Assembly: GCA_019745975.1 (NCBI GenBank)
Contig: JAIESQ010000141.1
Span: 1-55,307 of the forward strand
Direction: 5' to 3'
DNA from: Pirellulales bacterium
GTDB lineage: Bacteria; Planctomycetota; Planctomycetia; Pirellulales; JAEUIK01
DNA: 55,307 nucleotides
Part shown: positions 13,009-54,303 of the stretch, one piece after another
Layout: every line of letters begins with the position of its first letter
Position numbering within the stretch: the first letter of the stretch is position 1
The notes under the pieces: generated by a model
What the model saw: the letters and a program-made list of their open reading frames with translations, nothing else
Database searches by the model: none
Told to the model about the DNA's origin: nothing
Made by a program: the position numbers and the translations under genes

Positions 13009-13081
<73 letters not shown>

Positions 13082-38280: not shown

Positions 38281-39975
38281 ATGGCAATCGGCTGCGCTCG
38301 CGCTGCGGCCAGAAACTCGCTGCCGCCGCCGCCAGCGTCTCGTCGCGGCACGTGGTTTCGGCAGCGCCTTGCGGCGGGCCTGCTCGTTGCGCTGGCGCTG
38401 GCCAGTTGCCCATCGACTCGCGCGGCTGCTCCCGGCCAAGGCTACACGCCGGAGAGCCCGGAAGTCGTCGCGGCTGTCGGGCGCGCGATCAAGTTCCTGC
38501 AGAAGGACACCACCGAGCGCCGCATTGGCGGCCGGGCACTGATGGGGCTGGCCCTGGTAAAGGGAGGCACCGATCTCAACGACCCGCTCATCAAGGGTGC
38601 GGCTGAAGAACTTGCCAAGGCCGTGGAGACCGGCAACGGTCTCGAAGACGACAACATCCCTTACACACTCGGTCTGTCGATCATTTTTCTCGCGGAGCTC
38701 GATCCCCAGAAACATGGCGAGCAGATCAACGGACTGTTGAAGCGCTTGCTCGCGTGTCAAAAGCCACACGGCGGCTGGGGCTATCTCGGGCGACCGACCG
38801 GCGACACGTCGATGACGCAGTACGGTGTGTTGAGCATGTGGGAAGCATCGCGCGCCGGATTTGCGACGCCAATCGACGCCTGGGAGCGCGTCTGTAACTG
38901 GCTCTTGCGCACGCAAGACCCGACCGGCGGGTTCGGCTATCAGGGGGTAGATCCCGAGAATTTCGAACGCACGCGACAGATTGGCGTGCGGCATAGCTTG
39001 TCGGCGGCCGGTAGCGGCTGCCTTTATATCTGCCAGGATCACTTGGGGCTCGCCAGCCGCCAGTCGCAAGCGGGCTCGCTCCCCTCGAGCCTCCGCCGCG
39101 TCGAAAAACGCGACGCCGAGCAGCGCGGCGTTGTCGTCCGCCGCACGGCGAACGTCGACGCGCAGCGACTGAAGGCCGCCGAGCAGCTCGGCAATGCCTG
39201 GTTCGAGACGAACTACGAAATCAATCCTCCTGGCGGGTACATGCACTATTACCTCTACGCGCTAGAGCGTTATCAGAGCTTTCGCGAAGCGCTGGGTGGT
39301 CCGCCCGAGAAGCGTCCTTGGTACGACGACGGCGTGAATATCCTGTTGGAGAGCCAGGCGGCCGATGGCTCGTGGAGCGGCATGTGTGGCCCGGCGTGCG
39401 ACACGGCGTTTTCGATCCTGTTTTTGGTCCGATCGATGCGTAAGAGCCTCACCCGCGCCGGCTTGCTCGGCGACGGTGCGCTGTTGGCCGGACGCGGCCT
39501 GCCCAGCGACGGCGAGCTGGTGCAAACGCGCGGCGGTGAAGTGGTCGCCAAGCCGTTGGCTGGCCCCGCGGAGCATTTGCTCACGCTGATGGAAGATGCC
39601 GACAACCCCGAGTATCTCAGCGCCGTCGAGGGCTTCGCCGAACTGGCCGGCCAGGCCGATGAAGAGACCTTGAACAAGCATGCCCGCCGCCTGCGCGAAC
39701 TGGCCGATAGCCCGCGACCCGAAGCGCGTGTGGCGGCGGTGCGGGCGCTGGCCCGCACGCGAAACATCGACGAAGTGCCGACGTTGATCTACGCCTTGAG
39801 CGATCCCGACGGTGAAGTGGTGCAGGCGGCGGTCGAGGGCTTGCGCGTTTTGAGTCGCAAGCCGCCCAAATCGCCCGGCACGGTCGTCACCGACGACGCC
39901 AGCCGCCGGGCGGCGATCGAGTTCTGGAAGAGCTGGTATCGTGCGCTACGTCCCGACACAAACTGGGACGACTGA
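38281..39975 (+). CDS. Exported prenyltransferase/squalene-cyclase-repeat protein with HEAT repeats
   Basis: 564 residues from ATG 38281 (GTG 38269, with GAGG nearby, is an alternative). A signal peptide (AAGLLVALALASCPSTRAA) leads to repeats of the prenyltransferase/squalene oxidase type: LLACQKPHGGWGYLGR, RTQDPTGGFGYQG and LLESQAADGSWSG. The α/α-toroid is therefore probably complete, but the DxDD catalytic motif of squalene-hopene cyclases was not seen. The C-terminus carries HEAT-like helices (RPEARVAAVRALARTRNID, DPDGEVVQAAVEGLRVL). It may be a periplasmic binding toroid rather than an enzyme. It is the first gene of the long plus-strand run; the next gene starts two bases after its stop. 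Confidence 0.85.
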   Translation: MAIGCARAAARNSLPPPPASRRGTWFRQRLAAGLLVALALASCPSTRAAAPGQGYTPESPEVVAAVGRAIKFLQKDTTERRIGGRALMGLALVKGGTDLNDPLIKGAAEELAKAVETGNGLEDDNIPYTLGLSIIFLAELDPQKHGEQINGLLKRLLACQKPHGGWGYLGRPTGDTSMTQYGVLSMWEASRAGFATPIDAWERVCNWLLRTQDPTGGFGYQGVDPENFERTRQIGVRHSLSAAGSGCLYICQDHLGLASRQSQAGSLPSSLRRVEKRDAEQRGVVVRRTANVDAQRLKAAEQLGNAWFETNYEINPPGGYMHYYLYALERYQSFREALGGPPEKRPWYDDGVNILLESQAADGSWSGMCGPACDTAFSILFLVRSMRKSLTRAGLLGDGALLAGRGLPSDGELVQTRGGEVVAKPLAGPAEHLLTLMEDADNPEYLSAVEGFAELAGQADEETLNKHARRLRELADSPRPEARVAAVRALARTRNIDEVPTLIYALSDPDGEVVQAAVEGLRVLSRKPPKSPGTVVTDDASRRAAIEFWKSWYRALRPDTNWDD

Positions 39976-39977
39976 CG

Positions 39978-40883
39978 ATGGCCGGCACCGCGACACCTGC
40001 GATCACGAAACCGCGCGGCGACGCGGGTTCGCCGTCGGGGCTCGGAGTTTCTGCATTCGAAAACGTCACCAGCCTGGTGCTGGCGCTGTTGATTCTCGTG
40101 GCCGGCGGCGTGGTCGTGTTGTTCGCGCTTTGGCTGGGGAACCGCATGTTCACGTCGGTGGAAGCCGTGCCGGTCGTGCTGGCCGACGTGGGCGGGGGCC
40201 GCGAGGACGGCGTCGTCGGCGAGAGCATGCAGCTCGACGCGCCTGATGCCGAGGAAATCATCCGCGAAACCGATCTCGCGCCGCCGCAAGCCCCCACGGC
40301 ATTGGCCCTGGTGACGGAAGCGCTCGCCGCGCACGAAGCCGAGCTCGATGATCCGCAACTCGCCGACACGCTGGAAGGGGGCGCCCAAGGCAAGCTCACC
40401 GGCGACGGACGGCAGGTGGCCTACGGGCACGGCCCCGGCGAGCCCGGTGTTCCGCGCTGGAAACGGTGGGAGGTCTATTTCGCCGACGGCAGCACGCTCG
40501 AAGAATACGCCCGTCAGCTCGACTACTTTAAGATCGAATTGGGTGTGACCGCGCCGGGCAACCAGGTGGAGTATGCCGCGGGCCTGAGCCAGCCGACGCC
40601 CGCGCGACGCACCGGCCCGCGCGACGCCGAGAAGCGGCTGTGGATGGCCTGGCGGCAAGGCAGCCTCAAGGCGGCCGACGCCGAGCTGATGCGGCGGGCT
40701 GGCATCGATGTCGGCGGGCGCGTGATCCTGCAGTTCTACCCGCCAGAGCTTGAGAATCGCCTGGTGCAACTCGAAGGCGCATTCGCCGGACGCACGCAAG
40801 GCCAAATTCGCAAGACCCGCTTCGGCATCAAGTCGGAGGGACAGACTTACACGTTTTACGTGATCGAGCAGTTTCCGCTTTAG
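39978..40883 (+). CDS. Single-span envelope protein linked to ExbB/ExbD
   Basis: 301 residues: a short cytoplasmic N-terminus, one membrane span at about residues 29-55 (VTSLVLALLILVAGGVVVL), an acidic linker and a periplasmic C-terminal domain of about 140 residues (RWKRWEVYFADGSTLEEYA, QLDYFKIELGVTAPGNQVE, SEGQTYTFYVIEQFPL). That layout is what TonB or TolA would have next to ExbB/ExbD, although the Pro-rich spacer and TonB C-terminal signature are missing. It could be the force-transmitting partner, which is inference from layout and neighbours. The start codon lies two bases after the previous stop, so coupling is likely. Confidence 0.75.
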   Translation: MAGTATPAITKPRGDAGSPSGLGVSAFENVTSLVLALLILVAGGVVVLFALWLGNRMFTSVEAVPVVLADVGGGREDGVVGESMQLDAPDAEEIIRETDLAPPQAPTALALVTEALAAHEAELDDPQLADTLEGGAQGKLTGDGRQVAYGHGPGEPGVPRWKRWEVYFADGSTLEEYARQLDYFKIELGVTAPGNQVEYAAGLSQPTPARRTGPRDAEKRLWMAWRQGSLKAADAELMRRAGIDVGGRVILQFYPPELENRLVQLEGAFAGRTQGQIRKTRFGIKSEGQTYTFYVIEQFPL

Positions 40884-40944
40884 AATCGTCCCGACGGTGG
40901 CCCTGAGATCAGGCGACGTTTTACCACGAGAAAGCAGACGAACC

Positions 40945-41607
40945 ATGGGTGGAGACGCACTGGGCCGCTTGACCGATATCGCCGGCAATCTGTGCTATGT
41001 GGCGCTGGCGGTGGTGGCCGTCTGGGGGGCGTTCATGGTGATCATTACCTGGCGCCGCGTGGCGCAGGTGCGGTTTCGCAACGAGCGCGATCAGAATGCC
41101 TTTCTCGCGCAGCTCAATGAGAATCTCGATGCGGGCGATTTCGACGCGGCCGCCACGCTGTGCGCCGACGACACGCGGGCGGTGCCGCAACTGATCGGAT
41201 TGGCGCTGGCGCATCGCGACTTGGGGCCGGCCAAGCTGCGTCACCTTGTCGCCGATCGCTTCCAGCGCGATGTGCTCGCCGATCTCGAGTATCGCGTCAC
41301 CTGGGTGCAAACGGTTATCAAGAGCGCGCCGATGCTCGGCCTGCTGGGCACGGTCATTGGCATGATCGGTGCTTTTAGCAAGCTGGCGGCCACGAACAAG
41401 GTCGAACCCACCAAGCTGGCCAACGATATCAGCGTGGCCCTGATCACCACGTTTGATGGCTTGGTGATCGCCATTCCGTTGATCGTGGCCGTGGCCGCCA
41501 TCAACGTGCGGATCCGCAAGATGGAAGACCTGGTGGGGTTGGGTCTGACACAGTTTTTCGATGCCTACAGAGAAGTGGCCGAACGAGAGCCCCAGCTATC
41601 GCGCTAG
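40945..41607 (+). CDS. ExbB/TolQ/MotA-family proton channel subunit
   Basis: 220 residues from ATG 40945. There is one N-terminal span (LCYVALAVVAVWGAFMVII), a cytoplasmic helical region (ENLDAGDFDAAATLCADDT), and two C-terminal spans with the family signature VIKSAPMLGLLGTVIGMIGA, then ALITTFDGLVIAIPLIVAV. This is the three-span ExbB/TolQ topology. With ExbD it forms a proton-conducting stator. It is followed, after a 182-base gap holding a palindrome, by two ExbD genes. Confidence 0.93.
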   Translation: MGGDALGRLTDIAGNLCYVALAVVAVWGAFMVIITWRRVAQVRFRNERDQNAFLAQLNENLDAGDFDAAATLCADDTRAVPQLIGLALAHRDLGPAKLRHLVADRFQRDVLADLEYRVTWVQTVIKSAPMLGLLGTVIGMIGAFSKLAATNKVEPTKLANDISVALITTFDGLVIAIPLIVAVAAINVRIRKMEDLVGLGLTQFFDAYREVAEREPQLSR

Positions 41608-41683
41608 CGACGGACCATGGCAATTGCTCCGCCCACCACCGATAGAGCTGTGCACTTTGCTAATTTGTTTGACCCCGACAGTC

Positions 41684-41768
41684 GGGTGCCATGCCCACTG
41701 AGGTACTCCGAAGTGGGCATGCGGCTACGATTTTGTGCATGCCCACGCAAGCGTGGAGCATGGCACCC
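41684..41768. repeat. 85-bp composite palindrome between exbB- and exbD-like genes
   Basis: The outer ends GGGTGCCATGC and GCATGGCACCC form a perfect 11-bp inverted repeat. Inside are CATGCCCACT/AGTGGGCATG (10-bp stem) and CCACG-CAAG-CGTGG. It shares the GGGTGCCA...TGGCACCC termini with the 25641 element but has different arms. Being inside a likely operon it may attenuate or stabilise the mRNA. Confidence 0.88.
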
Positions 41769-41789
41769 CAATCGATCTAGCGTGAAACA

Positions 41790-42274
41790 GTGAACAGCCC
41801 TGCCACCACCGATACAACGATTAACGATCTTGGCCCGGTCTTTCCGCGGCGGCGGCTGATCGGCGACGGCGAAGCAGACATGACCCCCATGATCGACATG
41901 ACATTCCTGTTGTTGATCTTTTTTCTGGTGACGTTCAAGGCCACGGAATCGGACCTGCTCGAATTGCCTGAAGCACGGCATGGGGGCGCCGTCGGCAAAG
42001 GGGAGAGCGTGATCTTCTCGCTAGACCGCGTTCCAGGGCGGGCGGAAGCTCGAGTCTACCTCGGCGAAGACGAAAAGCATCCTCTGCCCGACGATCACGC
42101 CCGTCAGGCCGCCGAGATCCGTGCCGCCGTGGAAAGTGGCCAGGCTTCTGGTCGCCCGCATGTGTTGATCAAGGCCGATCGCGCGGTGCACTATCGTGAC
42201 GTGTCGCGGGTGGCGGCTGTCGTGGGGGAAGTCGAGGGGGTCCAACTGCACTTTGCCGTCGCGGATCCCGAATA

Positions 42275-42275
<1 letters not shown>
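41790..42275 (+). CDS. ExbD/TolR-family protein (copy 1)
   Basis: 161 residues starting at GTG 41790. After a short cytoplasmic N-terminus comes the hallmark DMTPMIDMTFLLLIFFLV with the proton-relay aspartate at the start of the span. The periplasmic domain has SVIFSLDRVP, ARVYLGEDEK and VLIKADRAVHYRDVSRVAA, matching the ExbD/TolR fold. It should assemble with the ExbB-like protein. No clear ribosome-binding site was found, so the start is provisional. The stop codon overlaps the next ATG (TAATG), coupling the two ExbD genes. Confidence 0.92.
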
Positions 42276-42937
<662 letters not shown>

Positions 42938-42940
42938 GGC

Positions 42941-45900
42941 ATGGCGCCAATCGATGAATTTCTCGATCACCTCGACACCAGCCAATTGGTGCCGGCTGCG
43001 CTCGTGGCGAAGCTCCGTCAGCGCGTGGCCGACGCCCGCCAGGCGGTCGACCCACGCACGGTCGGCAAGTACCTGATCGACCATGGCAAGCTGACCACCT
43101 GGCAGGTCAATCAATTGTTGGCGGGGCGCACCGCGTTCTTCTTGGGGCGCTACCGATTGGTCGATCGCATCGGCCAGGGGGGCATGGGCGTCGTCTTCAA
43201 AGCACAGCATGCCGTGATGGATCGCGTCGTGGCGATCAAGGTGCTCAATCGCTCGTTGTTGAGCAATTCGCAGGCGGTCGCCCGCTTCAATCGCGAAGTC
43301 AAGACTGCCGCCGCGCTCAATCACCCGAATATTATTGGCGCTTACGACGCCGACGCGGTGGGCAACACGCATTTTCTGGTGATGGAATATGCCGAGGGCT
43401 GCGATCTCAACCGCTGGCTCCGCGCGCATGGCCCCTTCGACGCGGCCGCTGGCTGCGAGTGCGTGCGACAAGCAGCCGAGGGCCTGCATCATGCCTGGCG
43501 GCAAGGTCTGGTCCACCGCGATATCAAACCGGTGAATCTGTTGGTCACCTGGAACAAGGAGACCGAGCGCCCCGTCGTCAAGATCCTCGACATGGGGCTG
43601 GCGCGATTCGCCAGTGAATCTTCGGAAGATGGCGGGCTGACGCGCGTCGGCCAGACGATCGGCACGCCCGACTACATCGCTCCCGAAGCCGCCGAGAACT
43701 TTAAGGGAGCAGATATCCGCGCCGATTTGTTCAGTCTCGGCTGCACGCTCTTCAAGTTGTTGACAGGGCGGTTGCCGTTTGCCGGCAACAACACGATGGA
43801 GAAACTGCTGGCGCGCACAAAGGCCGACGCACCGCCGCTGTCGGCGGTTTGTCCGTCGGCGCCGCCGGAGCTCGCGCCAGTGTTGGCGAAAATGCTCGCG
43901 CGCGACCCTGCCGACCGGTATCAGACACCCTCCGAAGTCATCGCCGCGTTGACGCCGTTTGCCGCCTTGAGCACTGGGCAGACGGCCGCGGTCGAGTTCC
44001 TGCGCACCCCGCCCGGCCAGAACGAGCCAGTCGCGCTGACGGACCTCGAGCCCGACGCTGACACCACGTTGGCCGAGTTTTTTCGCGACTGCTCGGCAGC
44101 GCCCGCCCGCGAGGAGATCACGCCGGGCGATCGCCCGGCGCCGCGACAAGCTCCCCCCTCGCCGTCGGCGGCGGGGCAATCAACGTCGGCCGACGAAGAT
44201 CTCGAATTGGCGCCGATCGAGGAGGACGAGAAGGCTGGCAGCCGTCCCACGACCGCGGCGAGTGCTCCTCCTGCAAGCCCGCCGATTGCCACTACGGGAC
44301 CTACGGCTGGCTCTAAGTCAGAAACCACCAAGGCGGGCAAGAGCGAATCGAAATCAAAGTCGAAGAAGCGCGAATCGAGTGGACGTGCCTCGGCACCCGT
44401 CCCAGATCTCGAAGATTTAGGGCCCCTCGGCGGCGGGTTGGTCGACGATGGTTTGGGGTCGCCGGCAGGCGATCTTGCTTCGGATGGCGCGCTCTTGGCC
44501 ACCGTTGGTCCTGCTATCTCGAAGCGGAAGAAGCGTCCCGACAACATCTGGGATTCGCCGCTCTTATTGGGAGCCGGCGGGACGTTGCTCTTCCTGGTAA
44601 TCGCTGGCGCGGCGCTGTGGTGGCTAATCGGGCGTCGCGATAGCGATGCAATGCTCACGAAAGCGATGGCCAGCTATCGAGCCGGGAATTACCCGGCGGC
44701 GATCGAGTGGTACGCCGCTTTCCTGGAGGCATTTCCGAATCACGAGCGGGCCTCTCTGGCTCGTGTGTGGACTTCATTGGCCAGGCTGCGCATGGCCACG
44801 ACCCCCGGCACTGACAAAGGCTCCGTGGCGGCGGCGCGACAGATTGTCCCCGAAATCATCGGCGAGAGCGCAGCCGCCGAAGCGCGCGAAGAGTTGGGCA
44901 GCATCTTGCCAACGCTGGCTGAAACGCTGGCCGCGGCCGCTGCACGCGAACAAAGCACCGAATTGGTCGATGCCGCGCGCGAGGCGCGCACGCTGGTCGA
45001 CGATTACGTTCCCAAGGCGCAGCGCCCGGGCCAGCGACTCGCCGAGATCGATGCTTCGCTCGAATTGACCAGCCGACAAATCGCCCGCGGTAGCGCTTTG
45101 GCGCAGGCAGTCGCCGAGATGCGCGCGGCGGCTGAGAAGGGCAACGCCGAGTCAGCCTACGCGACGCGACGGCAGTTGCTCAAGACTTACCCTGACGCTG
45201 TCAGCGAGGCATCGCTCATCGCAGCGCTCGTGGCCGTGTCGGCGGCCCAGCAGAAGGCCGTCGCGTTCCACGAGGAGCGCAAGCCCGCGGATACGACGCC
45301 GCTCGAGTGGCCCTGGGACGCGGCGGCTATTCTAGTGGCGCCTCCCAAGACATTTGGCACGACCGATGGTACCGCCACGCCGACCAATCGCTTGTCGGGC
45401 GCGGCCGTTGCGGCCCTGGCTGCCGATGCAGTCTACGCACTGGATGCGACAACCGGAGCCGTTCGTTGGCGACGCCAAGTGGGAACAGGTAACGACATCT
45501 GGCCGCAGCCCGTCTCAGCACAACCCGACGCCGACTGGTTGGTCGTCGATCGTCGCCGCCACGAGTTGTGGCGTCTCGCGGCAGCCACCGGCGAATTGCG
45601 CTGGCGGCAGTCGATCGGCACCGCTGCAGCCGCCGAGCCCGTGGTAGTCGGCTCGACAGCTTGGCTGGCTACTCGCGAGGGGCATTTGCTGGCAATCGAT
45701 CTGGAAATGGGCGCGCTCGCGCGGCGGATCGATCTGCCACAGCCCCTCGAGACGGCTCCCGTACTCGATCCCGCCGGTAAGCGCATTTACCAACTTGGCG
45801 AGCACTCGAATTTGTACGTGCTCTCGCCCGACGCCGGTACTTGCGATCAGGTCGTGTATCTGGGGCACGAGCCTGGCGCGATTCGCTCGGCGCCGGTCCT

Positions 45901-47434
45901 GGTGAGCCGCTATCTGTTAATCGCCGAGAATAATCGCCTCGACGACAGCGTGCTCCGCGTGCTGCTCGTTGACGAACAAGGCGCAAACCCCAAGGAGGTG
46001 CAGCAACTCCCGTTGGCGGGCCATGTGCTCGTGTCGCCGGTGATCGTCGATCGAGCCTGTCTGGTGGTGACCGATCTCGGGGCAGTTTACACGTTCGAAG
46101 TCAATCCGCCCGACCAGCCCACCGCACTTACCAAATTGGCCGAAACTGCTCCGACCGATCGTGCGCATGTGACGCGCCAGTTTGCAGTTCGCCCCGGACA
46201 ACTCTGGATCGGCTCCGACCGGCTCACGCGCTGGGATCTCCAGCTAGCGCGCGGCAAGCAAACGCCTGGCCTCGTGCAACTTGAGGACGAGACGTTCGTC
46301 GGGCCAGTGCGCCTCTACGGCAATCTGCTCATCGCAGCCCGGCACGCCGCTGGCGGCCGCGGCATCGCAGTCGCGGCTGTTGATACCGACTCGGGCAAGC
46401 TCCTCTGGGACACGCGACTGGCGATGCCGTTTGTGGGAGGAGCGTTCGCGGAACCGAGCGGAGATCTGCTCGCACTCTCGAACGCTGGTGAGCTGTTCGA
46501 CATCAAACCCGCCGACCTGGCGGATGGCGACCACATCTTCTCGGCACCGGCGACCACGATCGACGCCACGCCACCCCTGACGAGCGCGGCGTCGGTTGTG
46601 CCGATCGGCAAGCAGTTGCGGCTCTACAGCAGTGGCGCCACCGACGGGCGGGTGGTGATCGGCGGCGCCGGCAATACCGGCGCGCAGCGTTTGGCCTGGT
46701 TGTCGCTGCCCGACTCCGCGGCCGCGGTGCCGGCGGTTTTGGGGACGAGCCTGCTGGTGCCAAATATCGCCGGACGGGTCTTGCTACTCGATCCGCGGCG
46801 TGGGCGCGAGCTGGCTTCGCCGTTCCAGCCACCGCTGGAAGCTGGCGCGAAAATGGCCTGGCGAGATCCTGCCGCGTGGGGCGCGGATCGCGCGGTGCTC
46901 AGCGATCAAGGTACGAACGTCTATCTATTGGGGATTGAACAGCAGCCGACGCCCCGCCTGACGTTGCTGCGCGAGGCCAAAGCGCCGGCGGTAATTGCCT
47001 CGCCCTGGGCGGTGCTGGGCGACAAGGCGGTGGCCGTCGACGCCACGCAGCAATTGCTGTCATTCGGCCTGCCAGGGCTAGAGGCCGCCGCACCCGTGCC
47101 CGTCCCTGGCCCTGTCGTGTGGGGCCCGAAGGTCGTGGATGATCGTCTCTTCTTGGCGACTGCGACCGAGCTCGTGTGCTTCGACGCGCAACTCCAGATT
47201 TCCTGGCAATCGCCACTGACGAGCGGAGCACTGGCTGGCACGCCGGCCCCCAGCACACAAGGGCTGTTAATTGCGTCAACCGGAGGGCGTGTAGGGTTGG
47301 TTTCGCCCGAGACAGGCCAGGCGACGTGGACCGTCGAGTTAGGCGTGCCGCTCGCAGGCGGCCCCGTTATTTGGGGTGATCGCTTCGTTGTCGCCGGTGT
47401 CGATGGCACGCTCTACGTCGTTAAGCCAAAATGA
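42941..47434 (+). CDS. Transmembrane Ser/Thr kinase with PQQ-like propeller
   Basis: 1497 residues. The planctomycete lead-in (LTTWQVNQLLAGRTAFFLG) precedes a full PknB-type kinase domain (about 71-340): glycine loop IGQGGMGVV, VAIK Lys100, HRDIKPVN with catalytic Asp194, DMG Asp217 and APE 247-249. A low-complexity Ser/Lys/Pro linker leads to one membrane span (about 540-566, GTLLFLVIAGAALWWLIG). The outer part holds a short TPR-like stretch (MASYRAGNYPAAIEWYAAFL) and a long β-propeller of PQQ/WD40-like repeats (YALDATTGAVRWRRQVG, ETGQATWTVELG). This is a receptor-like kinase sensing through its propeller. It is three bases from the ExbD gene, so it probably controls that module. Confidence 0.93.
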   Translation: MAPIDEFLDHLDTSQLVPAALVAKLRQRVADARQAVDPRTVGKYLIDHGKLTTWQVNQLLAGRTAFFLGRYRLVDRIGQGGMGVVFKAQHAVMDRVVAIKVLNRSLLSNSQAVARFNREVKTAAALNHPNIIGAYDADAVGNTHFLVMEYAEGCDLNRWLRAHGPFDAAAGCECVRQAAEGLHHAWRQGLVHRDIKPVNLLVTWNKETERPVVKILDMGLARFASESSEDGGLTRVGQTIGTPDYIAPEAAENFKGADIRADLFSLGCTLFKLLTGRLPFAGNNTMEKLLARTKADAPPLSAVCPSAPPELAPVLAKMLARDPADRYQTPSEVIAALTPFAALSTGQTAAVEFLRTPPGQNEPVALTDLEPDADTTLAEFFRDCSAAPAREEITPGDRPAPRQAPPSPSAAGQSTSADEDLELAPIEEDEKAGSRPTTAASAPPASPPIATTGPTAGSKSETTKAGKSESKSKSKKRESSGRASAPVPDLEDLGPLGGGLVDDGLGSPAGDLASDGALLATVGPAISKRKKRPDNIWDSPLLLGAGGTLLFLVIAGAALWWLIGRRDSDAMLTKAMASYRAGNYPAAIEWYAAFLEAFPNHERASLARVWTSLARLRMATTPGTDKGSVAAARQIVPEIIGESAAAEAREELGSILPTLAETLAAAAAREQSTELVDAAREARTLVDDYVPKAQRPGQRLAEIDASLELTSRQIARGSALAQAVAEMRAAAEKGNAESAYATRRQLLKTYPDAVSEASLIAALVAVSAAQQKAVAFHEERKPADTTPLEWPWDAAAILVAPPKTFGTTDGTATPTNRLSGAAVAALAADAVYALDATTGAVRWRRQVGTGNDIWPQPVSAQPDADWLVVDRRRHELWRLAAATGELRWRQSIGTAAAAEPVVVGSTAWLATREGHLLAIDLEMGALARRIDLPQPLETAPVLDPAGKRIYQLGEHSNLYVLSPDAGTCDQVVYLGHEPGAIRSAPVLVSRYLLIAENNRLDDSVLRVLLVDEQGANPKEVQQLPLAGHVLVSPVIVDRACLVVTDLGAVYTFEVNPPDQPTALTKLAETAPTDRAHVTRQFAVRPGQLWIGSDRLTRWDLQLARGKQTPGLVQLEDETFVGPVRLYGNLLIAARHAAGGRGIAVAAVDTDSGKLLWDTRLAMPFVGGAFAEPSGDLLALSNAGELFDIKPADLADGDHIFSAPATTIDATPPLTSAASVVPIGKQLRLYSSGATDGRVVIGGAGNTGAQRLAWLSLPDSAAAVPAVLGTSLLVPNIAGRVLLLDPRRGRELASPFQPPLEAGAKMAWRDPAAWGADRAVLSDQGTNVYLLGIEQQPTPRLTLLREAKAPAVIASPWAVLGDKAVAVDATQQLLSFGLPGLEAAAPVPVPGPVVWGPKVVDDRLFLATATELVCFDAQLQISWQSPLTSGALAGTPAPSTQGLLIASTGGRVGLVSPETGQATWTVELGVPLAGGPVIWGDRFVVAGVDGTLYVVKPK

Positions 47435-47555
47435 CATGAGCTCGCCGGTCGTTGATCACCTGGATGGCCGTGTCGATGTAATGCGATGGCCGCCGCGCAA
47501 TTTTGGTTCACGTCGTCCAGAAGCGGCGGTTGCCCAGCAGCATGATGTCGCTCCC

Positions 47556-50120
47556 ATGTCCAGTGCGCCGAACACAATCCGCCGGTGCAGTTGCTTCATG
47601 CCGACCGCGCTGGCTGTTACGTTGCTGCTGGTAGCTCTGTCGTGCCCGTTATGCGATGCGGCCGACCCGGCAGCCGCCGCACCCGCTTCGGCGGCGCCAT
47701 CCTCGCCCACCGATGGCAGTCAGCCAGCAGACAAGCCGGCCCGGCTGATCGAAAAAGATCCCTTCGATCAGCTCGTGTTGAAAGACGGTTCGACGCTTGA
47801 CACCCGGCCGCTCGACTTACCGGAGCGACGCATGCCGACTAATCCCCGTCCTGGGGAGAAGTTGCGATTGCGGCTGGTCAGCGAGCCGGAGCAACTCTAC
47901 GAAGTGCCCTGGCGCGAGGTTGCCGACGTCAAGTTCTTTGAGCAGCTCGTGCTTGCCGAAGCCGAACGCTTGCTGGCCGCCGGCGAACTTGACGAGGCCT
48001 ATGAGTATTACGACTTTCTGGAGCGCAATTACGTCGGTTTCGCCCCGTTGGCCGCGTCGTATCAAAAGTTCCTCTTGGCAGACGCGGCGCGTGAACAGGA
48101 GCGCGGCAATCTCGACTACGCGTTGGTACTGTTCAACGAGCTGGCCGCGCGCAACACGCAAGCCGAAGGGCTCGATGCCGCGCTCGGCCAATTGGTCGAC
48201 CGGATCGTCGCGCGCGATCTCGAGCGACAGGATTACCGCGCCGCGCAGGCAGCATTGGCGGCGCTCGAACGACGCTTCGCCGGGCATGAGGTCGTCGTTC
48301 GTCGGCAACGTGAATTTGCCGACCAGGCCAACACTTTGGCAAACCGAGCCCGACAAGAGTTCGTGGCCAAGCACTTTCCCGAGGCCAACGATCTGGCTCG
48401 CCGCGCCGCCGTGATTTGGCCCGCATCCGAAGCCGCGCAAAGTGTGCTGGCAGAACTAGCCGATCACTATCCCTTGGTGGTCGTGGGCGTCATGCAGCCT
48501 GCGGCCAGCGACACGCCGGACAACTCGCGGCTTAACTCCGGGGCGAGCTCCGCCTTCTCGGCCGACGACTGGTCGGCGCTGCGTGTGCGTCGGCTGCTGG
48601 CACGCGAGCTGTCGGAGTTTCGCGGACCCGGCCCGGATGGCGGAGAATACCTCTGTCCTGTCGGCGAATTCGCCACGCGCGAACTTGGCAAGCAACTGGT
48701 CGTGCAGGTGCGCCCCGGAATTGAATTGTCACCGGCCAGCGGTCCGCTCGATGCCTTCGACATCGTTGAGCTGCTGTTGGCGCGGGCGGACCCGAGGAAT
48801 CGAAGCGGCAACTGGGCCTGGGCCGAGCTCCTTGCCAGGGTCGCCATTATCGACCCTCTGCACGTGCAAGTTGATTTTCAATACGCCCATTTGCGCCCCA
48901 TGGCGCTCTTGAACGTGCCGATCTCGCGACGTCCACAAGCCGGCCGAACGCGCCCCGGGGAGCCACCGATCCTCGCCGGCTATCGGCTCGGTATGCGCGA
49001 AGCGGAGCGCACGCAATTCTTGTCGATCGACGACTATTTTGCCGCCCGCGCGACGTCGCCGCGCGAGATCGTCGAGCGGAACTTCACCAAGTCAGCGGGG
49101 GCTATCGACGCACTTGAGCGCGGCGAGATTGTAGCGCTCGACCGCGTCAATCCGTGGGACTTGCCCCGGCTGCAGGCAATCGAGGGCGTGGTAGTGCAGG
49201 CGTATGCCGTGCCGACCGTGCACTGTCTGGTGGTCAACGCGCGTCGCCCGTTGTTGGGACAACGCACCTTTCGTCGCGGCCTGTCGTACGCGCTGCATCG
49301 CGAAGCGATTCTGAATACACAGCTATTGCGAGGCGCCACGGTCCCTGGCTGCCAAACGCTGAGCGGACCCTTCCCACGAAGCTACGCCTACAACGAGCGC
49401 GTGGCGGTGCGCGGATACGAACCTCGGCTGGCGATGCTTCTGGCGGAAATCGGCCAGAAGGAACTCGAGGCCGCCAAAAGCTCCAACGCCAAGGCAACAA
49501 CTACCGACGACGCGGCGACTAATCCACCCGCTGAAACTGCGAAAGTAGCCGCGTCTCCGGCAACTGAAGCCACAGTGACGGCTTCAACCTCACCGCCGGC
49601 AGCTTCGCCTGCGTCGCCAACGACCGGGGCGACTCAGCCCGCCGCCTCAGCGAAGTTCCCTGAACTGGTGCTGGTCCATCCCGCCGACGAAGTCGCGCGG
49701 TTGGCATGCCGCGCGATCCAGCGCCAGTTGGCACTCATCAAGATTCCCGTGCGACTCGTGGCCTTGGAGGCTGGCGATTTACATCTGCCGGCCGACTTTG
49801 ATCTGGCCTACGTCGAGCTGCAGATATGGGAGCCGCTGGTCGACGCCGAGCGCATTTTTGGCGCCGGGGGACTTGTGCCGCTCAGCAGCCCGCATGTCCA
49901 GAGTGCCCTAGGGCGGCTGCGCTGGGCGACCGATTGGGCGCAAGCTCGCGAGACGCTTTGGGAATTGCACGCCCTGTCGGCTGAAGACGCGGCCTTGATC
50001 CCGCTGTGGCAGCTCACCGAGCACTGCGCGCTGGGGAGCGAATTGTCGGGTGTCGGTATGCGACCGGCGACGCTCTACCAGGACATCGAGGACTGGCGAA
50101 TCCAGCCGAAAGGAAAGTAA
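47556..50120 (+). CDS. Exported TPR and family-5 solute-binding-like protein
   Basis: 854 residues from ATG 47556, just before a signal sequence (FMPTALAVTLLLVALS); an in-frame ATG at 47436, one base after the kinase stop, is an alternative. Residues about 100-310 are helical with TPR-like repeats (ERLLAAGELDEAYEYYDFL, GNLDYALVLFNELAAR). The C-terminal half resembles family 5 peptide/oligopeptide-binding proteins: LERGEIVALDRVNPWDL, VVQAYAVPTVHCLVVNARR, RRGLSYALHREAILNTQLL, and GATVPGCQTLSGPFPRSY. No ABC permease or ATPase genes are nearby, so it may bind a ligand for the kinase/ExbBD system rather than feed a transporter. An Ala/Thr/Pro-rich insert (about 660-730) splits the domain. Confidence 0.82.
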   Translation: MSSAPNTIRRCSCFMPTALAVTLLLVALSCPLCDAADPAAAAPASAAPSSPTDGSQPADKPARLIEKDPFDQLVLKDGSTLDTRPLDLPERRMPTNPRPGEKLRLRLVSEPEQLYEVPWREVADVKFFEQLVLAEAERLLAAGELDEAYEYYDFLERNYVGFAPLAASYQKFLLADAAREQERGNLDYALVLFNELAARNTQAEGLDAALGQLVDRIVARDLERQDYRAAQAALAALERRFAGHEVVVRRQREFADQANTLANRARQEFVAKHFPEANDLARRAAVIWPASEAAQSVLAELADHYPLVVVGVMQPAASDTPDNSRLNSGASSAFSADDWSALRVRRLLARELSEFRGPGPDGGEYLCPVGEFATRELGKQLVVQVRPGIELSPASGPLDAFDIVELLLARADPRNRSGNWAWAELLARVAIIDPLHVQVDFQYAHLRPMALLNVPISRRPQAGRTRPGEPPILAGYRLGMREAERTQFLSIDDYFAARATSPREIVERNFTKSAGAIDALERGEIVALDRVNPWDLPRLQAIEGVVVQAYAVPTVHCLVVNARRPLLGQRTFRRGLSYALHREAILNTQLLRGATVPGCQTLSGPFPRSYAYNERVAVRGYEPRLAMLLAEIGQKELEAAKSSNAKATTTDDAATNPPAETAKVAASPATEATVTASTSPPAASPASPTTGATQPAASAKFPELVLVHPADEVARLACRAIQRQLALIKIPVRLVALEAGDLHLPADFDLAYVELQIWEPLVDAERIFGAGGLVPLSSPHVQSALGRLRWATDWAQARETLWELHALSAEDAALIPLWQLTEHCALGSELSGVGMRPATLYQDIEDWRIQPKGK

Positions 50121-50125
50121 ACGCG

Positions 50126-51757
50126 ATGCTCTGGCCAGTGAGGCAGGCGTGGTGGTGCTCGATTGTCGGCTGCTGGCTGACGATCCTGGCGCCGCGCGCT
50201 ATGCCAGCCGACCAGGTGTGGGGAGCTACGCCCTATCGAATCGAGATTTGGGTCGCCATCGATCCGGCGTGCGGCGACGACGCGTTGTTTGCCGAACTCT
50301 CGGAGGCGCTGGCGACACAGATCGATCGGCTCATCGGCGGCGCATGGGATGCACGCATCAAGCCCGCTCCCGCGCCGCTTTTGCGTGCCGCGTTGGTCGA
50401 TCTGGATCATCTTCCGGTGGAGTCCTGGCCCAAACCTGAGGCGACTTCTACAGCCGAGCCTGTCGAGTCAATCACTAATCGCCCGCCGAGCGAACAAGCG
50501 CACACAGAGTCGGCCGCCATCGACAAACAGATCGTGCTGGCGGTGAGCCGCGCCAGCGCCGGCTGGCAACTGGCGGCACGCGAACTCGACGGCGGTAGCG
50601 GATTGCAGGGATGCACCGTACGCCGCACTGCCAACGACCGACAGGGATTGAGCGAAGCAGCTTTCCGCACGCTATTGGCCGCGTTCGCGCCGCTCGCGCG
50701 GATCGCAACCGTCGAGGGGAAGGCGATCGAACTCGACTGGCGCGCCAGCAAACTCCCGCATCGCGACCCTGGTCTGCAACTGATGCATCCCGGCGATCTC
50801 TTGCTACCCGTTGTCCGTGAATTCGATCGCGCAGGCGCGGTGCGCCGCGTGCAACCACTCGAATGGACGTTTATTCGCGTCGACGACGGTGCAGGATCAC
50901 CCAATCGCGGCACGCTGTTCAGCGGCCTGCGAGCACCACTGGGACGACGACGGCGAGGGCGAGTCGAACAGGTCGCGATCGTCGTTCGCCCCTCCGCTGG
51001 CTCCACGCGGCTTGAGCTTTGTTCTCGCACGCAACCCGAACGGCCGCTCATCGGTTACGAAGTCTACGCGCATGCTCCGGATTCTACCGAGACGCGTTTG
51101 CTCGGCGCGACCGACGGTCGCGGGCAGTTCTTGGTCGCTGCCCGCGCAAGCGAACCGTTGCAAATCCTCATCGTCAAGCATGGCCAAGAGTTTCTGGCGC
51201 GCTTGCCAATCGTGCCCGGATTGTTCGCCCAGCAGCGTGCTCCCGTCGTCGACGACGATCTGCGCATGGCGGTCGAGGGCTATGTTGTCGGTTTGCAAGA
51301 GCGGTTGGTCGACACAATCGTGCGCCGCAAGATCCTGCTGGCCCGCTTGCGAATGCGCATCGAGCAAGGGCGTGCCGGTGAGGCCCAGCCGCTGATGGAC
51401 GAATTGCGCAAGGTCGAAACCAAGGAACGCTTGCTCAACGAACTGGCCGGGCGCGAGCGGGCCACGGTGACCGACGATCCGGTCAGCACGGCCAGAATTC
51501 GCAAACTGTTTGCCGATACCCGCGAGGCCATTGAGCGGTACCTCGATCCGAACGAGATCGACGCCGCCGAACGGGAACTGGCGGCCGCCCGCAGTGGCAC
51601 GTCGCCGACACCGCCGCCAGCGGGCGACTCGGCTGCAGAGCCCAGCGCGCCACCCGCCTCAACGCCGGCGGCAGAAACACCGGCTGCTCAACCGCCCACC
51701 ACACCGCCGCCAATCGCGCCAACGAAAGCTGAACCAGCAGCCGCTGGCGCTTCTTGA
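50126..51757 (+). CDS. Exported hypothetical protein with Pro/Ala-rich tail
   Basis: 543 residues from ATG 50126, with AAGGAAA upstream, six bases after the previous stop. A signal peptide (WWCSIVGCWLTILAPRAM) precedes a β-rich region (PYRIEIWVAIDP, LEWTFIRVDDG, PLIGYEVYAHAPDST) that could include a carboxypeptidase-regulatory-like fold (ATDGRGQFLVAARASEPLQ). A helical charged segment follows (RLRMRIEQGRAGEAQPLMD), then a disordered tail of Pro/Ala/Thr repeats. No family is recognised. It is the last gene of the co-directional run and should act in the periplasm or outer membrane with the preceding binding protein. Confidence 0.72.
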   Translation: MLWPVRQAWWCSIVGCWLTILAPRAMPADQVWGATPYRIEIWVAIDPACGDDALFAELSEALATQIDRLIGGAWDARIKPAPAPLLRAALVDLDHLPVESWPKPEATSTAEPVESITNRPPSEQAHTESAAIDKQIVLAVSRASAGWQLAARELDGGSGLQGCTVRRTANDRQGLSEAAFRTLLAAFAPLARIATVEGKAIELDWRASKLPHRDPGLQLMHPGDLLLPVVREFDRAGAVRRVQPLEWTFIRVDDGAGSPNRGTLFSGLRAPLGRRRRGRVEQVAIVVRPSAGSTRLELCSRTQPERPLIGYEVYAHAPDSTETRLLGATDGRGQFLVAARASEPLQILIVKHGQEFLARLPIVPGLFAQQRAPVVDDDLRMAVEGYVVGLQERLVDTIVRRKILLARLRMRIEQGRAGEAQPLMDELRKVETKERLLNELAGRERATVTDDPVSTARIRKLFADTREAIERYLDPNEIDAAERELAAARSGTSPTPPPAGDSAAEPSAPPASTPAAETPAAQPPTTPPPIAPTKAEPAAAGAS

Positions 51758-51812: not shown

Positions 51813-53357
51813 CTACTGCAAGTTCGCCAGAATCAGGGCCAGGCAGACGATCACTCCCAGCGCGGCCAGCACCACCATCGTCAAGAGCAGCGGGGGAAGT
51901 CCCGACTTACGCTGCATCGTGCCCAACGACGATAGCGAGCGCCGCGACAACCGCTGCACGCGGCTGTAGATCTCGCGCGAGTCGAACAGCGGGCGAGTCT
52001 CCTCCGATGCCGACGCCAGCGGCACCGTCGCCTGCGAAAGCTGACTCGGACTGTCCCCCGGCGGCTGCTCGGCCGGGGAAAGGAAATCGAACGAGGGCTG
52101 CGTGTCGGGCAAAACCGCCACAGGAGGTGGCGTACCGTAACTTGGCGCTGCGCCGACGCTCGGCGGCAACGGTGGCGGCGCGTTCGGCGGCTTCGTCCCT
52201 GATGAACTCGCCGACAGCAGCGTCGCTTTGGGAAGCGGCGGTGGCAACAGCGTGGCGATCCCAGCCCGCACGCGCACGCTCGAGGTATCGAGCCAGGGGG
52301 CGAGCCGCTCGGCGACTGCTTCGGCGGTCGGTACGCGATGCGCGACTTCTTTGGCCATCATGTCGGCGATCACGTCGACGAACGGATCGGCCAGATCGGG
52401 ATTCAAGCGCCGCGGATCGAGCGGCTGGCGCGTGAGATGGCAGTGGAGCTTGTCGCGGGTTGTGCCGCCAGGGAAGGGCACTTTGCCCGTCACCGCGTAA
52501 TACAAGGTGCAACCCAGGCCGTACACGTCGCTGGCCGGCGTGAGCTGCTCGGGGGTGCGGACCTGCTCGGGCGAGAGGTAGTCGGCCGTGCCAACGATGC
52601 GCCCGCGACGACCTTCATTTTCCATCTCGGCGTCGAGAAAGTCGACCAACCCCAAGTCCGAGACCTTGGCTCGTCCCTCGGGCGTCACCAGGATATTGCC
52701 GGGCTTGACGTCACGATGAATCAGCCCTTTGGCGTGTGCGTGCGCCAAGCCGTGCGCGGCCTGTGCGATGATGCCTGCCGCGGCCGGCATGTCGAGCCGG
52801 CCATGGCGACGCACCAGGCGCCGCAGATCGGTGCCGGGCACATACTCGGTCACCAGGTAGTGCACATTGCCGTCGTGCCCCGCGTCGAGTGCGCGCACTA
52901 GATTCTCGTGGTCGAGTTGCGCCTGGGCGCGGATTTCGCGCATGAAACTGGCGATCGCCTCGGGGGTCGATTTGTGGCGCGGCAAAACCTTGATGGCGAC
53001 GATACGCCCCATGAGCACATGCTCGGCCCTGAAAACCTGGCCCATCCCCCCCTGCCCAATCGAGTCGATGACGCGATAGGGGCCAAGCGTGAACTTCGCG
53101 CGACCAAGCAACAGTTGGTCGGCCTGCCAACGATTTAGCCAGCCCCGTTCGACGAGCGCCGCGGCCAGCTTCTTGTCGGCCAGGTCGCTGGAACTCGGAG
53201 ATTCTTCGATGCCGGGCGTAGACGGAGCGGTGCCGCCCGACGAGGCAGCCAGCGTAGCGCTCGCTTCGTCCAGTTGCGCTTGGGTCACCAACCCACTGGT
53301 CAGCGCCGCAGCGCGAAACGGTGGTTTCGCGGGTATTTGCATCTCGCTTGCGACCAT
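51813..53357 (-). CDS. Tail-anchored Ser/Thr protein kinase
   Basis: 514 residues from ATG 53357 (TTG 53375 and ATG 53342 are alternatives). The lead-in LNRWQADQLLLGRAKFTLG is followed by a PknB-type kinase: IGQGGMGQVF, VAIK (Lys123), HRDVKPGN (Asp216), SDLG (Asp234), and SPEQV in place of APE. A long Pro/Ser-rich linker (PPNAPPPLPPSVG) leads to a single C-terminal span (LLLTMVVLAALGVIVCLAL) that leaves only a few residues outside, so the protein is tail-anchored with no sensor domain. It is convergent with the ExbBD-kinase operon. It may relay or antagonise that kinase; this is inference from location only. Confidence 0.92.
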   Translation of the reverse strand: MVASEMQIPAKPPFRAAALTSGLVTQAQLDEASATLAASSGGTAPSTPGIEESPSSSDLADKKLAAALVERGWLNRWQADQLLLGRAKFTLGPYRVIDSIGQGGMGQVFRAEHVLMGRIVAIKVLPRHKSTPEAIASFMREIRAQAQLDHENLVRALDAGHDGNVHYLVTEYVPGTDLRRLVRRHGRLDMPAAAGIIAQAAHGLAHAHAKGLIHRDVKPGNILVTPEGRAKVSDLGLVDFLDAEMENEGRRGRIVGTADYLSPEQVRTPEQLTPASDVYGLGCTLYYAVTGKVPFPGGTTRDKLHCHLTRQPLDPRRLNPDLADPFVDVIADMMAKEVAHRVPTAEAVAERLAPWLDTSSVRVRAGIATLLPPPLPKATLLSASSSGTKPPNAPPPLPPSVGAAPSYGTPPPVAVLPDTQPSFDFLSPAEQPPGDSPSQLSQATVPLASASEETRPLFDSREIYSRVQRLSRRSLSSLGTMQRKSGLPPLLLTMVVLAALGVIVCLALILANLQ

Positions 53358-53649
53358 CTGGCCCGGTCTGGCCAAATCGAGCGCATGAGCCGCCCGCGGG
53401 CAGCAGCCATGCGGGGATCGAACACCAACGAAGTCAGTCGAAAACGCGGGGCGAATGAGCTGCCAATTTGATGCCTGCGCGCAGGTCCGCGAACCGATCG
53501 CGCCGGCAATTCCAGCCTACCCAAGCCGCAAAGCTTCGCCAAGAGTTGCCGCCGAAACGGACCAGCCGAGTGCCGTCGAATCGCGAGCGAACCCTACGCG
53601 CGGAGCTTGTCAGCAGCCGTACATTCCGTATGGTTGGTGCAACCGCGCT

Positions 53650-54303
53650 ATGAACGAACCACTCATTCCTCCCCGCTTTCTGTTTCGGGTCTCGGCCCCC
53701 TGCCGATACCGCAATCCCCCGTGGCCCCTGGAGAAAGCGCCACTCGACGACCAGTTCCGGCTCCCGGATTTTGAGCTGCTCGATGGCGGCCGAGCCTTGG
53801 CCGACGTCCGCGCCGCCTGGAGCGAAGCGGGACTGGTCTTCGCGGTTCGCGTCGCCGGGAAGCGCACACCGGTGCGCTGCGACGAAGGACGCTACCTGCA
53901 AAGCGATGCCGTCCATTTCTGGATCGACACGCGCCACACCTACGACGTGCACCGAGCCAGCAGGTTTTGTCACCGCTTTTACGTGTTGCCGACCGGCGGT
54001 GGCCGCCGCCGCGACGAGCCGGTTGTCGAGCAGCTCATGATCAATCGCGCACGTGAAGACGCCCGCCGTGTGCGCCCGGGCGAGCTGAAAGCCCGCAGCG
54101 AGCGCCGCGTCGACGGCTACCTGGCCGAAGTGTTTTTTCCGGCGACCGCCTTGGGTGGCTTCGACCCAGTGGAGCACCCACGATTGGGCTTCACCTTCGC
54201 CGTGTTTGACCACGAGCTAGGGACGCAAACGTTTGCCAGCGGCGGACAATTGCCCTACGACGACGACCCCAGCACGTGGGGCACGCTCGAACTGGTGCGC
54301 TAG
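53650..54303 (+). CDS. CBM9-like carbohydrate-binding/DOMON-type protein
   Basis: 217 residues from ATG 53650; the open frame starts earlier, at 53455, without support. The pattern LDDQFRLPDFELLDGGRAL, then VRAAWSEAGLVFAVRVAG, then YLQSDAVHFWIDTRHTYDV, and ARSERRVDGYLAEVFFPAT, is the β-sandwich of family 9 carbohydrate-binding modules and related DOMON proteins. No signal peptide is visible from this start, so it may be cytoplasmic, or the real start may differ. The tail ELGTQTFASGGQLPYDDDP is typical. Ligand unknown. It is divergent from the kinase gene across a 292-base gap in which no promoter could be assigned. Confidence 0.78.
   Translation: MNEPLIPPRFLFRVSAPCRYRNPPWPLEKAPLDDQFRLPDFELLDGGRALADVRAAWSEAGLVFAVRVAGKRTPVRCDEGRYLQSDAVHFWIDTRHTYDVHRASRFCHRFYVLPTGGGRRRDEPVVEQLMINRAREDARRVRPGELKARSERRVDGYLAEVFFPATALGGFDPVEHPRLGFTFAVFDHELGTQTFASGGQLPYDDDPSTWGTLELVR

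What the first reader, a model, noticed from the sequence alone, without database searches (positions are those of the whole stretch)
38281..51757. Kinase-supervised ExbB/ExbD envelope operon with toroid and binding proteins
Eight plus-strand genes appear co-transcribed, with junctions of 2, 61, 182, -1 (overlap), 3, about 1-121 and 5 bases: prenyltransferase-repeat/HEAT protein, single-span TonB/TolA-like protein, ExbB, ExbD, zinc-ribbon ExbD, receptor kinase with propeller, TPR-SBP5 protein, secreted protein. The known parts suggest a proton-driven machine whose energised partner is not a recognised TonB, supervised by a kinase that senses the periplasm. I know of no described system with this make-up.
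Basis: partly seen in the sequence, partly recalled or inferred. Interest (0 to 1): 0.8.

Follow-up and report, generated by a model that had tools for sequence, protein, structure and literature searches.

The report
Class-wide proton-motor cell-envelope gene cluster

Summary
In detail: eight plus-strand genes, coordinates and junctions as stated. The neighbourhood is conserved: of 117 genomes (own included), 61 carry all seven families I searched and 40 none; in 42 of the 61 all seven lie on one contig within 22 kb, 41 collinear. A profile of the 301-residue protein (B) matches 220 of 248 genomes of the class; in a phylum sample only one weak match lies outside it. B has one membrane helix, a linker and a confidently modelled C-terminal domain without a clear solved-structure match. 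A helix motif is kept in 39 of 45 main-branch B proteins and lost in six of seven genomes that have B but no orthologous ExbB; a divergent sister module joins the same domain to a TonB-like helix with histidine. This supports a motor-driven transducer that is neither TonB nor TolA and whose main branch lacks the histidine (0 of 45). The 'secreted protein' resembles TolB and FlgT in fold. The kinase is not a core part (6 of 47 homologues). Contact with the motor, direction of work and purpose are unproven. Verdict: a new variant of the ExbB/TolQ-type proton-motor envelope systems.

The parts
38281..39975 (+). A: secreted toroid (squalene-cyclase/prenyltransferase-like repeats) plus C-terminal HEAT protein
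   Evidence: HEAT_2 6.8e-07, SQHop_cyclase below cut-off; best solved match a squalene-cyclase C-terminal-domain protein over residues 152-219, E 1.8e-05; in 71 of 117 genomes; hydrophobic N-terminal segment in 33 of 34 homologues. Start uncertain (frame opens at 37990).
39978..40883 (+). B: 301-residue putative force transducer: one membrane helix (model 26-57), post-helix hydrophobic stretch, low-confidence linker, C-terminal domain about 160-300
   Evidence: No Pfam or NCBIfam match; AlphaFold2 model, C-terminal domain pLDDT mostly over 90; 75 of 117 genomes, 220 of 248 in the class.
40945..41607 (+). C: ExbB/TolQ-type proton-channel subunit
   Evidence: MotA_ExbB 1.2e-23; invariant GTV and AL..T..GL positions in 25 aligned orthologues.
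41608..41789 (+). 182-nt ExbB-ExbD gap with a nested palindrome (about 41684-41768)
   Evidence: RNA fold -50.2 kcal/mol, z -4.93; exact GTGCCATGCCCAC at 41686.
41790..42275 (+). D: ExbD/TolR-type subunit, first copy
   Evidence: ExbD 1.1e-15; membrane-helix Asp in 41 of 41 fetched D homologues.
42275..42937 (+). E: ExbD/TolR-type subunit, second copy, with N-terminal CxxC...CxxC zinc ribbon
   Evidence: ExbD 1.4e-18; helix Asp in 41 of 42 fetched E homologues by pattern and in the last by eye; ribbon variable.
42941..47434 (+). F: kinase - membrane helix - TPR - PQQ propeller protein
   Evidence: Pkinase 2.2e-48, PQQ_2 3.8e-20; kinase domain in 6 of 47 homologues; membrane helix above a hydropathy cut in 45 of 47.
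47436..50120 (+). G: secreted TPR plus SBP5 (family-5 solute-binding) protein; alternative start 47556.
   Evidence: SBP_bac_5 8.1e-15; in 73 of 117 genomes; hydrophobic N-terminal segment in 43 of 46 homologues.
50126..51757 (+). H: secreted TolB-N/FlgT-like protein: alpha/beta domain about 30-205, beta domain about 190-288, Ig/CnaB-like domain about 290-380, helical C-terminus 378-489
   Evidence: AlphaFold2 mean pLDDT 86.5; Foldseek best TolB E 4.4e-06; VIA-align: chain of a flagellar LPHT ring Z 8.5 (199 aligned, rmsd 9.9), FlgT 3w1e Z 7.7 (197 aligned, rmsd 11.1), TolB Z 7.2-7.3 over the N-domain; 71 of 117 genomes.
51813..53375 (-). convergent Ser/Thr kinase, frequent neighbour but on the other strand
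   Evidence: Pkinase 2e-51; a convergent kinase frame within 600 nt of H in 17 of 40 H loci.

Best explanation
The cluster encodes a proton-driven trans-envelope machine of the ExbB/TolQ - ExbD/TolR type whose energised arm is the 301-residue protein B. Proposed working: protons pass an ExbB ring around an axle made of two different ExbDs (D and E); the periplasmic ExbD domains grip the hydrophobic stretch just after B's membrane helix; B is pulled or cycled, and its C-terminal domain acts on a periplasmic assembly of the membrane-anchored TPR/propeller protein F, the TolB/FlgT-like protein H, the TPR-SBP5 protein G and the toroid A. Most likely purpose: Tol-like mechanical work on envelope contacts, rather than import through TonB-dependent receptors. 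Shown here: gene content, conserved order, taxonomic range, conserved motor residues, loss of B's helix motif where the orthologous motor is missing, and a moderate TolB/FlgT fold resemblance of H. Inferred: the physical contact of B with the motor, the D/E heterodimer, the direction of work, and the purpose.
For: Presence nearly all-or-none and collinear. In another family of the class (f21) 13 of 17 fetched loci carry B-C-D-E-F-G-H in the same order. B profile: 220 of 248 genomes of the class; 41 of 392 in a phylum sample, 40 of them in the class. ExbB orthologues (167-307 bits with an alignment) occur in 27 of 55 chosen genomes; none in the 8 tested genomes of the order without B and none in G498, which lacks both. 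Of 75 genomes with B, seven have no ExbB at E 1e-20, confirmed by the alignment search, best 76.5-98.6 bits; in six of them the helix motif is lost, and 0 of 7 motor-less B proteins fit the motif that 39 of 45 main-branch proteins fit. Where C-D-E sit elsewhere in the genome the motif HMM still gives 51-67 bits. The sister module has B with SxxxH helices in 5 of 5 and the same C-terminal domain by HMM, 74-193 bits. Both ExbDs keep the helix Asp, ExbB its Thr positions. H resembles TolB/FlgT.
Against: No contact, transport or motility was measured or modelled. Main-branch B lacks the histidine that TonB and TolA use for motor coupling (0 of 45). The motif pattern was drawn after looking at the sequences, and the motif HMM was trained on 20 of the order loci it then scores at 65-87 bits; f21/f22 proteins, most of them beside an ExbB, score only 3-38, so G005, which has no ExbB but keeps the motif at 37.6 bits, is a real exception. 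Two of the six losses (G034, G054) are a lone B-type domain without the other families. Motor-less clusters A-B-F-G-H exist, so the other genes can persist without the motor. No outer-membrane barrel or Pal-like lipoprotein is in the cluster. The TolB/FlgT resemblance is moderate (Foldseek TM-score 0.15-0.16 over the query; FlgT rmsd 11.1).
Confidence: 0.5

Rival explanations
1. A Ton-like uptake machine: B energises outer-membrane receptors, and the SBP5 protein G and toroid A capture the imported ligand in the periplasm.
For: SBP5 and toroid domains are ligand-binding folds (that they bind ligands is general knowledge); the sister module's B has a TonB-like helix with histidine.
Against: No receptor, porin or ABC permease among the eight genes; B's C-terminal domain gives no TonB or TolA match; main-branch helix lacks the histidine; the best NCBIfam hits of C, D and E are TolQ and TolR, though all far below cut-off and ExbB close behind for C.
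Confidence: 0.2
2. A gliding or surface-motor machine: one ExbB-like and two different ExbD-like subunits drive periplasmic carriers along the envelope.
For: One ExbB with two heterologous ExbDs; [quoted passage not shown] The Agl-Glt and GldLM parallels are recalled.
Against: No vWA domain in the eight proteins by Pfam; no adhesin or gliding family among them; motility of these organisms was not examined.
Confidence: 0.12
3. Two functional units that happen to be neighbours: a generic ExbB/ExbD motor (C-D-E) and a periplasmic complex (A-B-F-G-H) without direct coupling.
For: C-D-E lie elsewhere than B in several genomes (eight flagged, at least two of them at contig ends); A-B-F-G-H occurs without an orthologous motor.
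Against: B sits with C in 59 of 68 genomes holding both; B's helix motif is lost in motor-less clusters but kept where C-D-E merely moved.
Confidence: 0.13
4. Kinase-supervised machine: the kinase part of F senses the periplasm through its propeller and phosphorylates the motor or B. (Not exclusive with the best explanation.)
For: In the window F is kinase - membrane helix - TPR - propeller; a second kinase gene often lies convergently behind H (17 of 40 H loci).
Against: Kinase domain in only 6 of 47 F homologues; the convergent kinase is missing in many loci of the order, and nearly all loci of the other families end too soon to show it.
Confidence: 0.08

Closest known systems
Tol-Pal system (TolQ-TolR-TolA-TolB-Pal-CpoB)
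   Same: ExbB/TolQ and ExbD/TolR motor genes beside a single-helix arm protein, TPR and propeller proteins and a protein with a TolB-N-like domain, in one conserved neighbourhood.
   Different: No TolA, TolB or Pal family match among the eight proteins; two different ExbDs; toroid and SBP5 proteins added. The TolB-like domain and the propeller sit on two different proteins (reading this as a split TolB is speculation).
Ton system (ExbB-ExbD-TonB)
   Same: Motor plus arm protein; the sister module's arm has an SxxxH helix.
   Different: Main-branch helix lacks the histidine (0 of 45); C-terminal domain without TonB match; no receptor gene.
vWA force transducers of PVC bacteria (PMC12204202, section 8)
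   Different: There the C-terminal domain is vWA and many members keep the SHLS motif; here no vWA match, main branch without histidine, and other neighbours (toroid, SBP5, TolB/FlgT-like).
FlgT of the Vibrio flagellar H-ring
   Same: H resembles FlgT over 197 aligned residues and a flagellar LPHT-ring chain over 199; [quoted passage not shown]
   Different: No flagellar family among the eight proteins; H adds Ig/CnaB-like and helical domains; the matches are loose (rmsd 9.9-11.1).

Membership tests
ExbB/TolQ-ExbD/TolR (MotA-type) proton motor | MotA_ExbB domain protein with conserved Thr positions in the pore helices | tested here: met
   (1.2e-23); GTV and AL..T..GL invariant in 25 aligned orthologues
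ExbB/TolQ-ExbD/TolR (MotA-type) proton motor | ExbD-type single-helix partner(s) with the proton-carrying Asp | tested here: met
   Pfam ExbD for both; Asp in 41 of 41 D and 42 of 42 E (one by eye) homologues
ExbB/TolQ-ExbD/TolR (MotA-type) proton motor | Proton conduction and 5:2 assembly | not testable with these tools
   Needs biochemistry or cryo-EM
Tol-Pal system | TolA, TolB and Pal genes with the motor | tested here: not met
   No such family match among the eight proteins. Genome-wide, 109 of 117 genomes have some TolB-profile match but 0 of 117 pass the curated cut-off, which only 2 of 14 control genomes pass; Pal and TolA were not searched genome-wide
Tol-Pal system | TolB-type N-terminal domain protein | tested here: inconclusive
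   H resembles it in fold (Foldseek E 4.4e-06; VIA Z 7.2-7.3) without sequence match
TonB/TolA force transducers | Membrane helix with the SHLS-type histidine | tested here: not met
   0 of 45 main-branch proteins have His in the helix core; 5 of 5 of the sister module do
TonB/TolA force transducers | TonB/TolA C-terminal domain | tested here: inconclusive
   No Pfam/NCBIfam match, no Foldseek PDB match at E 0.001, best VIA Z 3.6, none in a profile search of PDB sequences
TonB/TolA force transducers | D-box: short strand after the helix that binds ExbD | tested here: inconclusive
   The consensus has AVPV after the helix; binding untested; D-box definition from PMC10907165 passages
vWA force transducers of PVC bacteria | vWA C-terminal domain on the arm protein | tested here: not met
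   No vWA Pfam match for B
FlgT (H-ring) | FlgT domain tandem and flagellar neighbourhood | tested here: inconclusive
   Fold resemblance only; no flagellar family among the eight
Receptor-kinase supervision of the system | Kinase domain conserved with the system | tested here: not met
   6 of 47 homologues

The most novel reading that the evidence does not exclude
A class-wide third branch of proton-motor envelope machines, beside Ton and Tol: a new transducer family with its own C-terminal fold, a histidine-free motor-coupling helix in the main branch, a heterodimeric ExbD axle, and a periplasmic assembly in which the two halves of a TolB-like function (alpha/beta domain and propeller) sit on separate proteins. 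It would do the outer-membrane work of Tol-Pal in bacteria that divide without FtsZ.
Probability: 0.3. Interest if true: 0.8.

Novelty: new variant of a known kind. Interest (0 to 1): 0.62.

Why it matters
Planctomycetes lack ftsZ and, by a published gene survey, carry only a largely reduced Tol-Pal system (PMC8871954, passages), so how they energise outer-membrane work is open. This cluster is kept across a class, names a concrete candidate machine and an arm family without a name in the libraries searched, and offers a natural experiment (orthologous motor missing, arm's helix motif lost) that makes motor coupling without the classical histidine directly testable.

Tried and rejected
Kinase supervision as a core feature: rejected. 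Loss of the proton Asp in relocated ExbDs: a first pattern suggested it ('none' rows), but the sequences show the Asp behind a changed neighbour. A lipoprotein signal on A: lipobox-like in only 2 of 34 homologues. Naming B's C-terminal fold: no PDB or viral-library Foldseek match at E 0.001, VIA best Z 3.6, profile search of PDB sequences only weak hits; this does not show a new fold. TonB recognition of the sister-module B by sequence: none in Pfam or, for one of them (L120), PDB sequences, so 'TonB-like' rests on the SxxxH pattern; the SHLS motif is from PMC12204202 (section 8), its spacing recalled. Promoter/terminator scan: at chance level. A guessed repeat pattern: no match. ExbB scan of genome contigs: one distant hit. 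Essentiality screen of Planctopirus limnophila (PMC10632474): main text searched for ExbB, ExbD, TonB, Tol, MotA, kinase, none found, passages on other words seen; supplementary tables could not be read. Papers on such a cluster: the searches listed none that I recognised as describing it; for most hits I saw only the listing. A Rhodopirellula study reports exbB RB12053 and exbD RB12055 induced by salt (PMC2754498, passage); whether they are this cluster was not established. A Tuwongella proteome paper mentions new biopolymer-transport proteins in Gemmataceae (PMC8567305, passage); its source, which I took to be Mahajan et al. 2020 (DOI recalled), is not held.

Rows dropped: L186, L187 (stretches overlapping others) and L128 (B domain on an unrelated enzyme) were left out, L187 out; F homologues of 200 bits or less (such as L122's) were left out; ExbB matches of 140 bits or less were not counted as orthologues. 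G033's ExbB, counted as present, belongs to the sister module.
Full report
What is there. The window is one contig of an unnamed 7-Mb genome in 204 contigs. Pfam supports toroid/HEAT, ExbB, two ExbDs, kinase plus PQQ propeller, and SBP5; the 301-residue protein and the last protein have no family. I call the genes A (toroid), B (301 residues), C (ExbB), D and E (ExbDs), F (kinase-propeller), G (TPR-SBP5), H (secreted).

Is the neighbourhood real? Seven families (all but D) were searched one at a time in the same 117 genomes, the window's own included: A 71, B 75, C 70, E 66, F propeller 70, G 73, H 71, at family-specific thresholds. Combined, 61 genomes have all seven, 40 have none and 16 have some. 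In 42 of the 61 all seven lie on one contig within 22 kb, 41 of these in the same order; the exception, G072, has B moved behind E. B and C are linked in 59 of 68 genomes with both; F, G and H in 64 of 69. Some unlinked cases are contig breaks in draft assemblies, so the counts are lower bounds. I did not compute a probability.

How far does it reach? A profile of B matches 220 of 248 genomes sampled from the class and 41 of 392 from the phylum, 40 of them in the class and one outside at E 6e-4. In two families, labelled f118 and f121, the matches are weaker (about 1e-5 to 1e-24), and none of the 12 such genomes tested has an orthologous ExbB. In family f21, 13 of 17 fetched loci carry B-C-D-E-F-G-H in that order; the one f22 locus fetched carries A-B-F-G-H, with an ExbB orthologue elsewhere in the same genome, as 14 of 14 tested f22 genomes have one.

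B as the arm. AlphaFold2 gives a helix 26-57, a low-confidence linker and a C-terminal domain with pLDDT mostly above 90. Foldseek finds nothing in the PDB at E 0.001 and VIA-align's best is Z 3.6; that does not show the fold is new. Of 45 main-branch proteins 39 fit [YF][DEN]xxx[SG] at the start of the helix, a pattern drawn after looking at them, and none has a histidine in the core. The sister module in four genomes (L119, L120, L126, L127; B-E-F in all, C and D seen in three, G and H in some) has five B proteins; all five have an SxxxH helix, and they match the B profile with 74-193 bits, chiefly over the C-terminal domain. This bridges the family to TonB-type topology, but sequence searches do not recognise them as TonB.

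A natural experiment. Seven of the 75 genomes with B have no ExbB at E 1e-20. An alignment-based search agrees: orthologues score 167-307 bits, these genomes' best matches 76.5-98.6. In six of the seven the helix motif is lost (no or negative HMM score). Two of these six (G034, G054) have B as a short protein of a signal-like start plus the C-terminal domain, without the other families; the other four lie in A-B-F-G-H-type clusters, some with weak or separated members. The seventh, G005, keeps the motif at 37.6 bits. A second, motor-less copy in G015 has lost it too. Where C-D-E merely sit elsewhere in the genome (L110, L112, L114, L116) the motif scores 51-67. Against this: the HMM was trained on the 20 order loci that it scores at 65-87, and f21/f22 proteins, most of them beside an ExbB, score only 3-38, so the HMM is a measure within the order only. 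On trees, A (quick tree; the careful one did not finish) needs three changes for the motor-less label, forced by well-supported branches; G needs two, but well-supported branches do not rule out one. I count this as a few events, not seven. It suggests that the helix is under selection chiefly where the motor exists.

Motor. ExbB keeps the GTV and AL..T..GL positions in 25 orthologues. The helix Asp is present in 41 of 41 D and 42 of 42 E homologues, the last one read by eye; an apparent loss in relocated copies was an artefact of my first pattern. That D and E are kept together suggests a heterodimeric axle (inference).

H, the 'secreted protein'. Its model is good (mean pLDDT 86.5). Foldseek's two matches under E 0.001 are both TolB (4.4e-06 and 1.6e-05). 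VIA-align gives Z 8.5 to a chain of a flagellar LPHT ring (8z5n; 199 aligned, rmsd 9.9), 7.7 to FlgT 3w1e (197 aligned, rmsd 11.1), and 7.2-7.3 to TolB structures over the N-domain (105-119 aligned, rmsd 2.9-3.4). Residues 290-380 resemble Ig/CnaB-like domains (best Z 9.8; a CnaB2 domain 8.6) and 382-492 a helical part of CorA (Z 9.4). The tool warns that Z under 8, or under about 13 for helical parts, may mean only a common arrangement, so I treat 'TolB/FlgT-like' as probable, not shown. It matters because TolB and FlgT both belong with motors of this superfamily (FlgT: PMC7990780, passages; TolB: general knowledge).

F and the kinase. Of 47 fetched F homologues over 200 bits only 6 have a kinase domain: three of the window's family (the window itself is a further case) and three of the sister module, the latter without the HRDxK motif. 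A membrane helix above a hydropathy cut is present in 45 of 47. So the conserved part is a membrane-anchored TPR and propeller protein, and the kinase is a local addition. A separate convergent kinase behind H is found in 17 of 40 H loci, all in the own order but not in all its loci; nearly all loci of the other families end before that place.

What it most likely does. The parts are an inner-membrane proton motor, an arm, and periplasmic proteins with TPR, propeller, TolB/FlgT-like, toroid and SBP5 folds, with no outer-membrane barrel. The best NCBIfam matches of C, D and E are TolQ and TolR, far below cut-off. Of 117 genomes 109 have some match to the TolB profile but none passes its cut-off; only 2 of 14 control genomes pass, so this is weak. 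A published survey states that Tol-Pal is largely reduced in Planctomycetes (PMC8871954, passages). I therefore favour Tol-like work on the envelope over receptor-driven uptake, at low certainty as to purpose.

Comparison with print. [quoted passage not shown] The present arm has no vWA match, and its main branch lacks the histidine stressed there, but the authors' general point, that motor-driven systems remain to be discovered, fits. In my searches I saw no paper describing this cluster; most subscription journals are missing from the library.

Limits. No physical interaction was tested or modelled. Taxonomic labels are codes. D was not searched separately. Co-transcription rests on spacing and conserved order only, and a strong palindrome (z -4.93) lies in the ExbB-ExbD gap.

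Noticed in passing
window 51813-53375 (-): A second Ser/Thr kinase gene lies convergently right behind H; a convergent kinase frame is found within 600 nt of H in 17 of 40 H loci, in 15 of these beside an F without kinase domain.
   Followed up: partly
window 41684-41768: Nested palindromic element in the ExbB-ExbD gap, folding far better than shuffles (z -4.93); looks like a REP-type repeat, with only one exact copy of its arm in the window.
   Followed up: partly
L128:6878-8206 (-): B's C-terminal domain sits at the C-terminus of a 443-residue 3-keto-disaccharide-hydrolase-type protein (PF06439, 1.3e-41), so the domain also occurs on other proteins.
   Followed up: no
L118 (G004): A second B gene next to, and divergent from, an ExbB-ExbD-ExbD set in a genome of the window's own family.
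   Followed up: no
L119, L120, L126, L127: A divergent sister module (B, E and F, in three loci also C and D, in part G and H) whose B has a TonB-like SxxxH helix and whose F has, in three of four, a kinase-like domain without the HRDxK motif.
   Followed up: partly
window 53455-54303 (+): Open frame with a weak CBM9-type carbohydrate-binding match (E 0.0004, below cut-off) downstream of the cluster.
   Followed up: no
window 13009-13082 (+): tRNA-Phe gene, the only tRNA found in the window.
   Followed up: no
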